A stretch of 56,041 nucleotides of DNA from the NCBI GenBank assembly GCA_945868875.1, contig CAMBMW010000002.1, positions 1 to 56,041 on the forward strand, given 5' to 3'. The notes under the pieces are model-generated. The model worked only from the letters and a program-made list of their open reading frames with translations, was not told the origin of the DNA and did not search any database. Numbering within the stretch: the first letter of the stretch is position 1; every line of letters begins with the position of its first letter. The position numbers were made by a program, and so were the translations under genes. This DNA is from an uncultured Treponema sp. (GTDB taxonomy: Bacteria; Spirochaetota; Spirochaetia; Treponematales; Treponemataceae). Positions 6,053-49,582 of the stretch are shown here, one piece after another.

Positions 6053-6694
6053 ATGGAAAATGATTTGAAGTTACCTGCATTGGCTCCTTCTTTGCTTTCA
6101 GCCGATTTTTGCAGTTTAGAAAATGCGATTAAACAAATAGAAGAAAATGGTGGTTCTGTAGTTCATATTGATGTTATGGACGGTCAGTTTGTTCCTGAAA
6201 TCACATACGGTCAACCAGTTGTGCGTTCTATCAGAAAACTTACAAAACTGCCGTTCGATGTACATTTAATGGTAGAAAATCCAGAAAACAAAATAGATAG
6301 TTTCGTAGATGCCGGTGCTGATTGGATAACATTCCATTACGAAGCAACAAATCATGCTCACAGGCTTATTCAGATGATTCACGAAAGAGGAAAACTTGCA
6401 GGCGTATCAATTTGTCCGGGAACTCCAATTAATATACTATCGGAAATACTAAAATGTGCCGATATTATATTAGTGATGACTGTAAATCCAGGTTGGGGCG
6501 GTCAAAAAATTATTCAGTCCTGTGTTGAAAAGATTGCTGAATTAAAGAAAATTCGTGAGGAAAAAGGATATAATTATCTGATTTCTGTTGACGGCGGTGT
6601 GAATTCACAAACTCTGGAGAGTGTAAAATCTGCTGGTGCCGATATAATCGTTTCTGGTTCTGCATTTTTTAACAACACGTTAAAGTGGAGTTAA
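6053..6694 (+). CDS. rpe: Ribulose-phosphate 3-epimerase (ORF track starts at 6005; ATG 6053 preferred)
   Basis: APSLLSADF, VVHIDVMDGQFVPEITYG, DVHLMVENP, MTVNPGWGGQ, SVDGGVN motifs. Confidence 0.96.
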   Translation: MENDLKLPALAPSLLSADFCSLENAIKQIEENGGSVVHIDVMDGQFVPEITYGQPVVRSIRKLTKLPFDVHLMVENPENKIDSFVDAGADWITFHYEATNHAHRLIQMIHERGKLAGVSICPGTPINILSEILKCADIILVMTVNPGWGGQKIIQSCVEKIAELKKIREEKGYNYLISVDGGVNSQTLESVKSAGADIIVSGSAFFNNTLKWS

Positions 6695-7795: not shown

Positions 7796-9037
7796 ATGAA
7801 AAAAAATAAAGTTTTATTTTTATTAATATTTATTATTGCTTTATTTATCTCATGTGCCTCTACAAAGAAGGAAAATACAGAATCAAATAAGAATATTGAA
7901 AAAGATAATAAAAAAGGAACAGCCAGTAAAAAGATGAGTTTTCTGGGCTGGATAGACGTTTCTGAAAAAGAAATGGAATTATCTATGGGTATTGTTACAG
8001 TTAAATTGAAACCAAAATTAGGTTCTTTTAATTATTTTGTTTCAAATAAAAACAAAAAACAGATTCCGGTTTTGTCCACATCAAATGAATATACAGGTAC
8101 TTCTGTTCAATTAAAAGTAGGAAATCAGGTTTATAAACTTATTTCCGATTCGAAAACAAAGGTGACAGCAGGAAAAGGTGAAAAAAAAATATATATGAAT
8201 TATGAAATTCCTTCAGTTGCTGATGTAAGAATTGATTTTAATTTTGTTTCAAGTGAGGATAATTCAAATTTTGATACTTTAAAAATTGTATATACAATAA
8301 CTAATACTGGAACAAAGAAAAAAGATTTCTCTGTAAAAACTATTTATGATACAACCCTAGGAGAATCCTCATCAACACATTTTTTTGTAGCTGATGATTT
8401 ACCTGTAAAAAATGAAGTTATGTATAAAACTATGCAAAATCAAAAATGGGTGATTTCAAAAAATAATAATGCTTCTGCTCAGTTTTTATTTAACGGTGGT
8501 GATACTACTGAACCACAGATTGTCGCTCTTGCAAATAAGGTAACACTGGAAAAAGATGTCTGGGAGCCGGAAATGTTCACATACAGAGCATTTGATACAG
8601 TATTATCTTATAATAATTCTGCTATTGGAGTAATCTGGCCTTCTGTCATGATTATGCCTGGAAAAACTTCTAAAATAATTCATTATGTTAATTTTGCTAC
8701 AGAAAATGAACAGCCGAAAGGTGAACGGTATGTCTATTCTCAGTCAGAAAAAACTTCAGATTTTTCCCAAAAGTTAATAGATTTTAATGATAAAAATGAT
8801 GAAAATAATGAAAATTATTTAGAACACAATGATGAAAAAAATCAGAATTATAATCTTCCTCTAGTGGAATTTAACGTAAATTCTTTAGAAAAAGAAAAAT
8901 TATCTGTTGAGTATGTAAATAAGCTTATTCAAAGAATAACAGAATTGGAAAAAGATTCTTCAATTGTTAATAGAGAAGAGATATTAATGTTGAACGCTGA
9001 ACTTGATTACATTTTATCTGTGCTACGCAGGCAGTAA
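7796..9037 (+). CDS. Putative lipoprotein, unknown function
   Basis: Signal peptide with lipobox-like LFISCAS. Confidence 0.65.
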   Translation: MKKNKVLFLLIFIIALFISCASTKKENTESNKNIEKDNKKGTASKKMSFLGWIDVSEKEMELSMGIVTVKLKPKLGSFNYFVSNKNKKQIPVLSTSNEYTGTSVQLKVGNQVYKLISDSKTKVTAGKGEKKIYMNYEIPSVADVRIDFNFVSSEDNSNFDTLKIVYTITNTGTKKKDFSVKTIYDTTLGESSSTHFFVADDLPVKNEVMYKTMQNQKWVISKNNNASAQFLFNGGDTTEPQIVALANKVTLEKDVWEPEMFTYRAFDTVLSYNNSAIGVIWPSVMIMPGKTSKIIHYVNFATENEQPKGERYVYSQSEKTSDFSQKLIDFNDKNDENNENYLEHNDEKNQNYNLPLVEFNVNSLEKEKLSVEYVNKLIQRITELEKDSSIVNREEILMLNAELDYILSVLRRQ

Positions 9038-9137
9038 TTTTTTATTGAGAATACGATGTAAACTGTTTATAAAAAAATTGCTGGATTTTTATCGAAAATT
9101 CTTGTAAACTGATATGAATTTGAGGTAAAATCATAGT

Positions 9138-18345: not shown

Positions 18346-19074
18346 TTGAAAAAGACATTCTTAAAAAAAATAATTCTATTTTTCATCGTTTTGGAATGTC
18401 TTTTTTTATTTAACAGTAGTTGTGGGCTTGATGTTTTTACAATGATTAATCCACCTTATAGTTTGATTAATAAACCTGCTTATTATGATGTCGAAGTTTC
18501 ATCAAAATATTTTGAATTCTATACTAATGAAACAGAGGACAATGAGTTTGATGGAACTGCAGTATATTATAAAATATATAATAATGTTGAAAAACTCCAG
18601 TCTGATGTTGCATCTCTTGTTTCTTTAGCAAATGATTCTCAAAATAATTATAATGCTCCATACAGGTTGATAGAAAAAGGTTATTTTTATTATCAGCCTT
18701 TACGAAAAGAAGGAAACTCCAGTCAGATTTTAGTAGAATATACAGGTTATCCAAAAAAAGTTCATATTCGGTTGAGTGATTATAAAAATTTTAGTGATTT
18801 TTCTGCTTGCATTAAAATATCTGAAAACAATATTGGAAAACCATTAAGAAATTTATCTAATAAATCAACTTTCAATTTTTTTGCTAAAACTTCTTATGAT
18901 AGAATTCCTGAGAAAAATGATGATGATGTAAGATTTTCAGGAAATGCTACAGATGATGGATTGTACGTTTCTATGTTTGCCGTTGCAATAGGTCATAATC
19001 TTGATTATACACCAATCTATAGTAATATTCTTTATTTAGGTTCTGTTAAAATAAATCCAGAGGATTTTTCTTAA
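18346..19074 (+). CDS. Putative lipoprotein, unknown function
   Basis: Signal peptide followed by lipobox-like FNSSCG. Confidence 0.6.
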   Translation: MKKTFLKKIILFFIVLECLFLFNSSCGLDVFTMINPPYSLINKPAYYDVEVSSKYFEFYTNETEDNEFDGTAVYYKIYNNVEKLQSDVASLVSLANDSQNNYNAPYRLIEKGYFYYQPLRKEGNSSQILVEYTGYPKKVHIRLSDYKNFSDFSACIKISENNIGKPLRNLSNKSTFNFFAKTSYDRIPEKNDDDVRFSGNATDDGLYVSMFAVAIGHNLDYTPIYSNILYLGSVKINPEDFS

Positions 19075-19435
19075 CTATTTTTTTTGTATTTGAGTCATAA
19101 AAAAATATAAGTTTATTTAACTTTAACTATTCTTCAATGGTGTAAAGATTAAATCAACAAGAAACAATCTTGTTATTAAAAAATTGCTTAAAATCAGATA
19201 AAATCAAGAACAAAGTTAAATTACAATAAAACGACCTTGAAATAAATCTTCAGGACAATAATTCTTTTGGCGCAAATATAACAGAAGAAGAATATGTTAT
19301 TGAATGAAATGTTTTTTTCTGATAAAATCTATATGTAAAAATACTTGCGATGATTCTGCATATTTTTACTGCAATTTGTATGATTGTAATTTTTCTTTTT
19401 TTTAGCCGAGATGATTCAGCGGCAAGGAAGTTACC

Positions 19436-45585: not shown

Positions 45586-46782
45586 TTACATTCTTTCTCT
45601 TATTGCTTTAATAAACTGCCATGAATCAAGCACTTCTTTAGCTTTTGGTTCAGCAATGCGTGCAATATCTCCAGTCATATAACCTTCTTCGATAGTTTGC
45701 AAAGTAGCTTTTTCAAGTTTTTTTGCAAAATCAACGAGTTCGGTAGTTCCATCAAGTTCACCACGTTTTGCAAGAGCTCCTGTCCAGGCAAAAATTGTAG
45801 CAACAGGGTTTGTAGAAGTTTTTTCACCTTTCAAATATCTGTAATAGTGCTTTTGAACAGTTCCGTGACTTGCTTCATATTCAAAGTTTCCGTCAGGACT
45901 TACAAGAACAGAAGTCATCATTGCAAGCGAACCGCAAGCAGAAGCAATCATATCGCTCATAACATCGCCATCGTAATTTTTTGTAGCCCACATAAAACCA
46001 CCGTCAGAACGCATGACACGAGCAACAGCGTCGTCAATCAAAGTGTAAAAATATTCAATTCCAGCTTCATCAAATTTTGCCTTGTATTCATCATCAAAAA
46101 CTCTTTGGAAAATGGCTTTGAAGTTTCCGTCATAAGTTTTAGAAATGGTATCTTTTGCACCGAACCAAACACTTAGTTTTCTATCCAAAGCATAAGTAAA
46201 ACAACAGCGTGCAAAACTTTCGATAGATTTATCCAGATTGTGAATTCCCTGAATAATTCCAGGACCTTTCATATCCATTATAGTTTTGCGAATTTCTTTT
46301 CCATCTACGCCAGTGAAAACAAGTTCAGCTTTTCCAGCTGTAGGACATTTGATTTCGCAGTTTTTGTAAACATCGCCGTAAGCATGACGACCAAGAACAA
46401 TAGGTTTTTTCCAGCATGAAACTGTTCCATGAATATTTTTTACAAAAATAGGTTCGCGGAAAACAGTGCCGTCTAATTCAGCTCGAATAATTCCATTTGG
46501 AGAAGGAGTAAGCTGTTTTAGGTGATATTCCTCAACACGAGCCTGATTTGAAGTAATAGTTGCACATTTAACACCCACTCCTAAGCGTTTAATTGCTGCG
46601 GCTGCATCGTAAGTAACTTTATCATCAGAATCATCACGACTTTTAAGACTCAAATCGTAATATTCTGTTTTTAAATCCACAAAAGGCAAAAGGAGTTCAT
46701 CCTTAATCACCTGCCATAAAACACGAGTCATCTCATCGCCATCGAGCTCAGCGATAGCATTTTTCATTTGAATCTTAGCCAT
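45586..46782 (-). CDS. icd: NADP-type isocitrate dehydrogenase
   Basis: [114 protein letters not shown]. Confidence 0.97.
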
Positions 46783-46872
46783 AATGCACTTATTATAATA
46801 AATTTTATGTGGTCATTCAATTCTTTTAAAAAACTTTTGTAAAAATTAAAAAAAAGTATTTGGGAAAAAAAT

Positions 46873-47087
46873 GGGGACAGACCTCTATTAATTGGAAGTT
46901 GTGCGGTTAAAAGAGGGACAGTCCTCAATCGTTTAGAGAGTATGAAGTCTAAAACGGGGACAGTCCTATTTTTTTTTGTGAAACAAGGACTGTCCCTGTT
47001 TTAAAAATAAGGTATGTCCCTTTTTCCAAGCTTAAAAAACAAGGTCTGTCCCTCTTGTATTGAAGTGAAAAACAGGGACAGACCTTG
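46873..47087. repeat. Seven-copy bidirectional GGGACAG(A/T)CCT array
   Basis: Copies at 46873, 46914, 46956 (+), 46986, 47009, 47041 (-) and 47074 (+); near-perfect 17-bp inverted repeat 46951-46967/46986-47002 and perfect 14-bp inverted repeat 47040-47053/47074-47087. Confidence 0.85.
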
Positions 47088-47162
47088 AATTATCTGTCCA
47101 TGTGTTTTGTGAGATGTAAGAAAACTTTTTGTGGTATTTAAATGGCACCAAGCATGGAGCCG

Positions 47163-47215
47163 TAGCCGAAGGCTAGTCCGCAAGGACCGAGTGATTAACG
47201 AGCGGCGTAACGCGC
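47163..47215. repeat. GC-rich mini-hairpin cluster
   Basis: TAGCC-GAA-GGCTA (47163-47175), GTCC-GCAA-GGAC (47176-47187), GGCG-TAA-CGC (approx. 47204-47213). Confidence 0.7.
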
Positions 47216-47347
47216 CTACTTAACTGAATTTGTGCTGATAAATTTATTGTGAACTTTCCTTTTTTATTTATTTCATGGATTTTTTATTGAGAAAATGCGT
47301 GAATTGTGATAGAATTTTGTATATTTTTTTTATCTTTGGAGACTCTT

Positions 47348-49582
47348 ATGAAACTTTGGCAGTCTGGTGCTTATTTTGTTGACGGAAAACTGGTTGAATC
47401 GGCTGATGGTTGTAATGTCTGTGATGGCAGAAAAAAAACTATGGCTTATTCTATTTTGCAAAATCATAATACTTCTGGTGATGATGCAAAACTTAAAATA
47501 AAATTTGATAAAATTACTTCCCATGATATCACTTATGTTGGAATTATTCAGACTGCAAGAGCTTCTGGGCTTAAAAAATTTCCTCTTCCTTATGTTTTGA
47601 CGAACTGTCATAATTCGCTTTGTGCTGTTGGCGGAACTATTAATGAAGATGACCATATGTTTGGTTTGACTTGTGCGCAAAAGTATGGTGGAGTTTATGT
47701 TCCTCCTCACATGGCTGTTATTCATCAGTATGCTCGTGAAATGCTTGCTGAATGTGGCGGTATGATTTTGGGTTCTGACAGTCACACTCGTTATGGTGCG
47801 CTTGGTACTATGGCTATTGGTGAAGGCGGGGGAGAACTTGCAAAGCAGCTTTTGAATAAAACTTATGATGTTGCTTATCCTGGTGTGGTTGCTGTTTATT
47901 TAACTGGTGAACCAGTTCCTGGTGTTGGTCCGCAGGATGTTGCTTTGGCTATTATAAAGGCTGTTTTTGATAATGGTTATGTTAAAAATAAAGTTATGGA
48001 GTTTACAGGTCCTGGCGTTTCTAAGTTGAGTGCTGATTTCCGCATTGGTGTGGACGTTATGACTACAGAAACTACATGTCTTTCTTCTATCTGGCGTACT
48101 GATGAAAAAATTGAAGAATGGTACGAAATTCATGGTCGTCCAGATGCTTATAAAGAATTGAATCCTCAAAATGGTGCTTATTATGATGGTGCTATTGAAA
48201 TTGATTTAAGTGAAATTCGTCCGATGATTGCACTTCCGTTCCATCCTTCCTGCGCTTATACTATAGAAGAAGTGAATAAAAATTTAATGGATGTTTTGGA
48301 TGAAACTGAAAAGCGTGCAAAAATTTCTTTTGGTGATAAGGTTCAGTTTACGCTCAAAAACAAAGTGATTGATGGTAAGCTTTATGTTGACCAGGGTGTT
48401 ATTGCTGGTTGTGCTGGTGGTGGATTTGAAAACATTTGTGCTGCTGCTGATATTCTTAAAGGAAAAGATACTGGAAATGGCAAATTCCTTTTGAATGTTT
48501 ATCCAGCTTCTATGCCTGTTTATCAGGAATTGATGAAAAATGGTGCTTTTAGCGCTCTTGTGAGTGCAGGTGCTATTATTAAAACTGCATTCTGTGGTCC
48601 TTGTTTTGGTGCTGGGGATACTCCTGCAAATGGTGCATTTTCTATTCGTCATTCAACTAGAAATTTCCCTAATCGTGAAGGTTCTAAGATTCAAAACGGA
48701 CAGCTTTCTTCTGTTGCCCTTATGGATGCTCGTTCTATTGCAGCTACGGCAGCAAATAAAGGCTTCCTTACTGCTGCTACTGAATTTGATACAGAATTTA
48801 GTGGTAAAAAATATTTCTTTGATAAAGCTATTTATGATAAACGTGTTTATGATTCAAAAGGTGTTGCTCATCCTGAAGTAAATATTCAGTTTGGTCCAAA
48901 TATTAAAGACTGGCCTGAACAAAAAGAACTTGGTAATGATTTGCTTTTAAAAGTTGTTTCTGAAATCCATGATCCTGTTACAACTACTGATGAATTGATT
49001 CCTTCTGGTGAAACTTCAAGTTTCCGCTCAAATCCTCTTGGACTTGCAGAGTTTACTTTGAGTCGTAAAGATCCAGCTTATGTTGGTCGTGCAAAAGCTG
49101 TGCGCGATATGAATGATGAAATAAAAGCTGAGATTAAACAGGTTGTAACTGCATTGGCTAAAAAAGATGCTGATTTGGGAGCAAAGGCTGCAAGTGCTCA
49201 GATTGGTTCTACTATTTTTGCATGTAAACCTGGTGACGGTTCTGCTCGTGAACAGGCTGCAAGTTGTCAGCGTGTTTTGGGGGCAAGTGCTAATATTGCA
49301 AATGAATATGCAACAAAAAGATATCGTTCAAATCTTATTAACTGGGGAATGTTGCCTTTTGTTTATAAAGATGGTGATAAAAATCTTCCTTTTGTAAATG
49401 ATGACTATGTTTTTATTCCAGAAGTAAGAAAGATGATTTGTGATAAATTACCTTGCGTAAAAGCTTATGCCGTTAAAAAAGATGGCTCAGTCAATGAGTT
49501 TGAACTTTCAGTTGGAGATTTGACTGATGATGAAAGAAAAATAATTTTGGCAGGTTGCTTGATTAATTTTTATAGAGAATAA
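47348..49582 (+). CDS. Aconitase-family hydratase (YbhJ-like)
   Basis: [71 protein letters not shown]-like C-terminal motifs; ATG 47348 with upstream GGAG. Confidence 0.88.

What the first reader, a model, noticed from the sequence alone, without database searches (positions are those of the whole stretch)
46873..47087. Seven-copy bidirectional GGGACAG(A/T)CCT array between divergent icd and the aconitase-like gene
Seen directly: seven copies of an ~11-nt core in ~215 bp. Three are forward (46873, 46914, 46956), three reverse (46986, 47009, 47041) and one forward (47074). Core variants are GGGACAGACCT, GGGACAGTCCT and one GGGACATACCT. Copies 3 and 4 form a near-perfect 17-bp inverted repeat; copies 6 and 7 form a perfect 14-bp one. 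From general knowledge, GGGGACAGACCCC-like motifs recur in several bacterial genomes near REP-associated tyrosine transposases (RAYT/IS200-like). This could therefore be a non-autonomous REP/BIME-like array mobilised in trans. Alternatively it could be a multi-site operator for the divergent promoters.
Basis: partly seen in the sequence, partly recalled or inferred. Interest (0 to 1): 0.7.

Follow-up and report, generated by a model that had tools for sequence, protein, structure and literature searches.

The report
Transposase-linked REP-like repeat array
The seven repeats upstream of a central-metabolism gene are one of many clusters of a short repeat present about 300 times in this bacterium and matched to its own "jumping-gene" enzymes, so they are most likely mobile-element litter of a known kind and not a dedicated gene switch.

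Summary
Seven copies of GGGACA(G/T)(A/T)CCT lie at 46874-47085, oriented + + + - - - +; shuffled sequence gives 0.29 hits. The array is not unique: the genome carries 299 exact GGGACAGWCCT copies against 1 for the reversed control, mostly intergenic. It encodes three intact 248-259-aa Y1/HUH transposases, each bracketed by the same repeat; their predicted fold best matches the E. coli RAYT-REP complex 4ER8. Across 196 genomes of the family, all 12 genomes with 10 or more copies have a homologue of this transposase. Genomes with more divergent homologues are often rich in GGGGACAGACCCC, absent here. The array is missing upstream of icd in 28 congeners, including one where icd and the aconitase-family gene are directly divergent, and is reshuffled in the nearest species. 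These are not canonical GTAG REPs: they fit the published TIRYT class (RAYT group 1, subclass 2.1; GGGGWSAS terminal repeats). Mobilisation in trans is inferred, not shown. New member of a known kind.

The parts
46874..46884 (+). REP-like core copy 1, GGGACAGACCT
46915..46925 (+). REP-like core copy 2, GGGACAGTCCT
46957..46967 (+). REP-like core copy 3, GGGACAGTCCT; left arm of hairpin 46950-47003
46986..46996 (-). REP-like core copy 4, GGGACAGTCCT; right arm of hairpin 46950-47003
47010..47020 (-). REP-like core copy 5, variant GGGACATACCT
47042..47052 (-). REP-like core copy 6, GGGACAGACCT; left arm of hairpin 47040-47087
47075..47085 (+). REP-like core copy 7, GGGACAGACCT; right arm of hairpin 47040-47087
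45586..46782 (-). icd, NADP-dependent isocitrate dehydrogenase (flanking gene, not part of the repeat system)
   Evidence: PF00180 and NCBIfam NF006156
47348..49582 (+). aconitase-family hydratase (flanking gene, not part of the repeat system)
   Evidence: PF00330 and NCBIfam NF008503
47143..47240 (.). separate 98-nt repeat at the right edge; two copies bound an extra gene in sister species G201

Best explanation
The array is one cluster of a genome-wide REP-like family whose unit is about 23 nt: an almost invariant 11-nt core GGGACAGACCT inside a weakly conserved, roughly symmetric AAAAC...(T/C)G.TTT frame. The family belongs to three resident HUH/Y1 transposases of the TIRYT type (RAYT group 1, subclass 2.1), whose genes are bracketed by the same element. 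Proposed mechanism: the transposase recognises the single-stranded core or hairpin at its own gene ends and at dispersed copies; over evolution it, together with recombination at the cores, spreads copies into intergenic DNA, where they multiply and shuffle locally into arrays. The array upstream of icd is such a cluster and not a purpose-built operator. Shown: high copy number, intergenic bias, bracketing of the transposase genes, co-occurrence and co-divergence with the transposase, absence at orthologous sites, module shuffling between sister species. Inferred: recognition, cleavage and mobilisation in trans by the transposase.
For: 299 exact copies against 1 for the reversed control. 18 of 129 copies in ORFs although ORFs cover 85%. 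Three intact Y1 transposases, all bracketed by the repeat; NCBIfam REP_Tyr_transpos 57-60 bits; HUH and Y---N invariant; best fold match 4ER8, the RAYT bound to a REP hairpin. All 12 of 196 family genomes with 10 or more copies have a homologue; none of 168 without one does. Core variant follows the transposase clade. GGGACAG on both sides of 14 of 23 homologue loci, shuffled expectation 0.2 upstream and 0.5 downstream in all. No array upstream of icd in 28 congeners; rearranged in G201. 117-nt tandem array with 6 copies here and 3 in G006.
Against: No clean empty site was found, so movement itself is not shown. REP_Tyr_transpos scores are below that model's cut-off of 80 bits. The frame around the core shows no covariation, so a conserved single-unit hairpin is not established. 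A few genomes have modest copy numbers without a detected homologue (G007: 15 GGGGACAGACCCC). Co-occurrence was not corrected for phylogeny.
Confidence: 0.85

Rival explanations
1. The array is a dedicated multi-site operator that co-regulates the divergent icd and aconitase-family promoters.
For: Seven copies in a divergent intergenic region; candidate sigma-70-like promoters on both sides.
Against: 299 copies genome-wide. None in 28 congeners upstream of icd, including G042 where the two genes are divergent at 527 nt. In G201 and G006 the two genes are about 3.3 kb apart, with an 861-aa gene between them in G201. Array order reshuffled in G201. Candidate promoters lie outside the array.
Confidence: 0.04
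2. The copies are binding sites of a host DNA-binding protein (chromosome organisation or global regulation), and the transposase only happens to share the sequence at its ends.
For: The core is nearly invariant (119 of 146 identical at up to 1 mismatch) while flanks vary freely, as for a selected protein site.
Against: Copy number tracks the transposase and is near zero in most congeners, where a host function should persist. The core sequence changes with the transposase clade.
Confidence: 0.06
3. The repeats are spread only by recombination and replication slippage at inverted and tandem repeats, with no part played by the transposase.
For: Neighbouring copies resemble each other; tandem units change in number; modules shuffle between species.
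Against: Does not explain why the dispersed core matches the transposase gene ends, nor the co-occurrence and co-divergence with the transposase.
Confidence: 0.1

Closest known systems
TIRtrons / TIRYT transposases and their TIR repeat families (Di Nocera et al. 2013, PMC3733652; mostly subclass 2.1 = RAYT group 1 in PMC6006769)
   Same: Y1/HUH transposase gene bracketed by inverted GGGGACAG-type repeats (GGGGWSAS consensus); the repeats also occur dispersed, in dimers and clusters; long C-terminal extension.
   Different: Larger repeat population (282-556 copies in three species) than the 'moderately abundant' families described; consensus here is RGGGACAG rather than strictly GGGG; the HTH families named for the C-terminus were not found by Pfam.
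Canonical REP / RAYT and REPINs (E. coli, Pseudomonas)
   Same: Hundreds of short intergenic, partly palindromic copies; related transposase fold (4ER8); arrays and mosaic clusters.
   Different: No GTAG foot, no long stem; most neighbouring copies are in the same orientation (55 same, 27 inverted) and singles are common.
IS200/IS605 insertion sequences
   Same: HUH/Y1 catalytic core; a broken IS200-like gene is also in this genome (C199).
   Different: The bracketed transposases are longer and score better with REP_Tyr_transpos than with the IS200 model.
BIMEs (bacterial interspersed mosaic elements)
   Same: Repeat units separated by spacers that shuffle as modules.
   Different: No regular alternation of orientation; spacers of the simple arrays are unrelated between loci.

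Membership tests
TIRYT / RAYT group 1 (subclass 2.1) repeat system | Y1 transposase with HUH and Y---NP signature | tested here: met
   Y1_Tnp 61-67 bits; H60, H62, Y119, N123 invariant, own proteins read YILQNP; fold match 4ER8
TIRYT / RAYT group 1 (subclass 2.1) repeat system | Gene flanked by inverted repeats with GGGGWSAS motif | tested here: met
   GGGACAG copies 58-157 nt upstream and 79-230 nt downstream of most genes; the preceding G is present in most relatives and in some own copies (position -1 is A in 73%, G in 26%). Orientation is inverted at C142, same-oriented at C120, mixed at C69
TIRYT / RAYT group 1 (subclass 2.1) repeat system | C-terminal HTH-like extension (Bac_DnaA_C, HTH_23 or HTH_28) | tested here: inconclusive
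   None of the three families found; HTH_7 in 2 of 8 members, best E 0.005; model has short C-terminal helices 214-226, 231-238, 242-247
TIRYT / RAYT group 1 (subclass 2.1) repeat system | Placement in subclass 2.1 by tree with reference sequences | not tested
   Reference sequences not at hand
Canonical GTAG REP / RAYT | GTAG or GTGG tetranucleotide at the 5' foot of the palindrome | tested here: not met
   Consensus of 141 full-context copies has no GTAG at either side
Canonical GTAG REP / RAYT | Stem-loop unit supported by compensatory changes | tested here: not met
   Consensus symmetry only; pairing at the frame positions does not exceed shuffles
REPIN | Inverted doublets as the main unit | tested here: not met
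   27 inverted against 55 same-oriented neighbour pairs; 25 of 61 clusters are singles
icd operator array | Conserved upstream of icd in related species | tested here: not met
   0 copies in 28 congeners; reshuffled in G201; one copy in G006
Any transposable repeat | Mobilisation by the transposase demonstrated | not testable with these tools
   Needs binding, cleavage or excision assays; no clean empty site in about 1.15 Mb of sister genomes

The most novel reading that the evidence does not exclude
In this genus (name not established by a tool), a TIRYT-type HUH transposase has built a repeat population as large as those of classical RAYTs without a GTAG foot or a long stem, and the 3' half of the core (ACCT, ACCCC, AG(C/G)) has diverged together with the transposase, giving a natural series from which the DNA-recognition code of RAYT group 1 could be read.
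Probability: 0.35. Interest if true: 0.5.

Novelty: new member of a known kind. Interest (0 to 1): 0.35.

Why it matters
It settles an apparent operator as mobile-repeat sequence, which prevents a false regulatory annotation of icd. It also adds a high-copy example to a class (TIRYT / RAYT group 1) whose link to dispersed repeats was described as limited (PMC3733652) or not found (PMC6006769) and whose DNA target is not established. Co-variation of core and transposase across congeners gives a direct route to test recognition.

Tried and rejected
Covariation of the frame around the core: none beyond shuffles, so no claim of a conserved single-unit hairpin. Rfam scan of 46700-47400: only sub-threshold hits to hairpin families. 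PDB sequence searches gave nothing useful; the fold search was needed. Empty-site hunt in about 0.78 Mb of G006 and 0.38 Mb of G201: informative copy-number differences but no clean empty site. Some core matches in ORFs are ordinary coding sequence (L047:14322 and L037:5164 align to variant codons in G006). Search of named genome contigs failed twice, the machine gave no answer. The 2017 RAYT classification paper is not held. Error corrected: the aconitase-family query was translated out of frame; the gene positions used here come and from the DNA alignment.

Full report
Observation. They are far beyond chance, 8 matches against 0.29 at up to one mismatch, and the two inverted pairs are real. 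The genes on either side are an NADP isocitrate dehydrogenase (- strand) and an aconitase-family hydratase (+ strand).

The array is one of many. The whole assembly (2.18 Mb, 204 contigs) holds 152 forward and 147 reverse exact GGGACAGWCCT; the reversed-pattern control gives 0 and 1. In the stretches I fetched, only 18 of 129 copies fall in ORFs of 120 aa or more although such ORFs cover 85% of the sequence. From 146 copies the core is nearly invariant, with a weak frame, AAAAC(A/G) before and (T/C)G.TTT after. The frame is symmetric by consensus, but its variants do not compensate each other. Copies occur as singles and in clusters of up to seven. Neighbours are same-oriented in 55 pairs and inverted in 27, and neighbouring copies resemble each other more than random pairs do, 0.64-0.68 against 0.53. 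Part of the population sits in 112-149-nt tandem units that mostly carry the core plus a longer shared body. The icd array is of the simple type with unrelated spacers.

The transposase. The genome has three intact Y1_Tnp proteins of 248-259 aa on C142, C120 and C69, plus a broken IS200-like gene on C199. Copies of the repeat lie on both sides of all three and next to the fourth. The proteins match NCBIfam REP_Tyr_transpos at 57-60 bits, below the cut-off of 80. They keep the HUH and Y---NP signature. The predicted structure has the E. coli RAYT-REP hairpin complex 4ER8 as its best match, E 3.1e-6 (that 4ER8 is the E. coli protein is from general knowledge).

Co-occurrence and co-divergence. 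In 196 genomes of the family, twelve have ten or more copies of GGGACAGWCCT and all twelve have a homologue of this transposase; none of the 168 genomes without one reaches ten (Fisher p = 6e-12, not corrected for phylogeny). Genomes whose homologue is 77-100% identical (G000, G201, G006) have 282-556 copies and no GGGGACAGACCCC. Eight genomes with homologues of about 46-58% identity have 22-115 copies of that variant. Homologues at 26-34% identity in other genera often have GGGACAGAG(C/G) at their flanks. GGGACAG lies on both sides of 14 of 23 testable homologue loci, against shuffled expectations of 0.2 upstream and 0.5 downstream summed over all loci.

The icd site in relatives. Twenty-eight congeners with icd 88-95% identical have no GGGACAG within 600 nt upstream of icd; one of these offers only 135 nt of upstream sequence. 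In G042 the aconitase-family gene is divergent at 527 nt with no copies. G201 (icd 99.7%) has seven copies, but the segments between cores are in another order: the spacer CTATTAATTGGAAGTTGTGCGGTTAAAA follows copy 1 here and copy 5 there. The facing copies 3 and 4 both read T at core position 8 here, and the corresponding pair in G201 both read A, so the two arms changed together. G006 (icd 98.5%) has one copy and a different repeat there. In G201 an 861-aa gene lies between the array and the aconitase-family gene, bounded by two copies of a 98-nt repeat, and in G006 the two genes are also about 3.3 kb apart. The direct divergence seen in this genome therefore most simply arose by loss of that segment. 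The candidate promoters lie outside the array. None of this fits a conserved operator.

Copy-number change elsewhere. A 117-nt tandem array on C28 has six copies here and three in G006 with 97% identical flanks. Other loci differ by one unit or by replacement with a different repeat. I found no clean empty site, so movement by the transposase remains an inference.

Relation to the literature. Di Nocera et al. 2013 (PMC3733652) named TIRtrons and TIRYTs: Y1 transposase genes flanked by terminal inverted repeats sharing a GGGGWSAS motif, some amplified as moderately abundant families in dimers or clusters. The 2018 survey (PMC6006769) assigns most of these to subclass 2.1, equal to RAYT group 1, notes HTH-like C-terminal extensions, and reports no REP-like sequences beside the genes. 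The present system fits that class, with a large repeat population. Membership by tree was not tested, and the named HTH families were not found.

Verdict. I rate it a new member of a known kind.

Noticed in passing
window 47143-47240; G201 locus L166 at 6185-6282 and 8994-9086: A 98-nt GC-richer repeat at the right edge of the array. In G201 two copies bound an 861-aa gene between icd and the aconitase-family gene; this genome has one copy and lacks the gene, which suggests loss by recombination between the repeats.
   Followed up: partly
L036:46-596, L047:11518-12117, L046, L066, L055: Tandem units of mostly 117 or 142 nt that contain the core plus a shared body with an inverted repeat (GAGTTTT...AAAACTC) and GCACGTGC/GCACGAG boxes; six copies here against three in G006 at one site.
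   Followed up: partly
L035:1-490 (C199): A broken IS200-like tnpA whose end abuts a core copy.
   Followed up: no
L077 upstream of icd; L186 about 18960-19080 (both G006): At two sites where this genome has simple arrays, G006 has different GC-rich repeats instead.
   Followed up: no
genome G007: 15 GGGGACAGACCCC copies but no homologue of the transposase among listed matches in a 94% complete genome: possible orphan population or missed gene.
   Followed up: no
window 46957-46996 against G201 L166: The two facing cores of one hairpin carry the same A/T change between sister species, as expected of arm-to-arm copying or replacement as a unit.
   Followed up: partly
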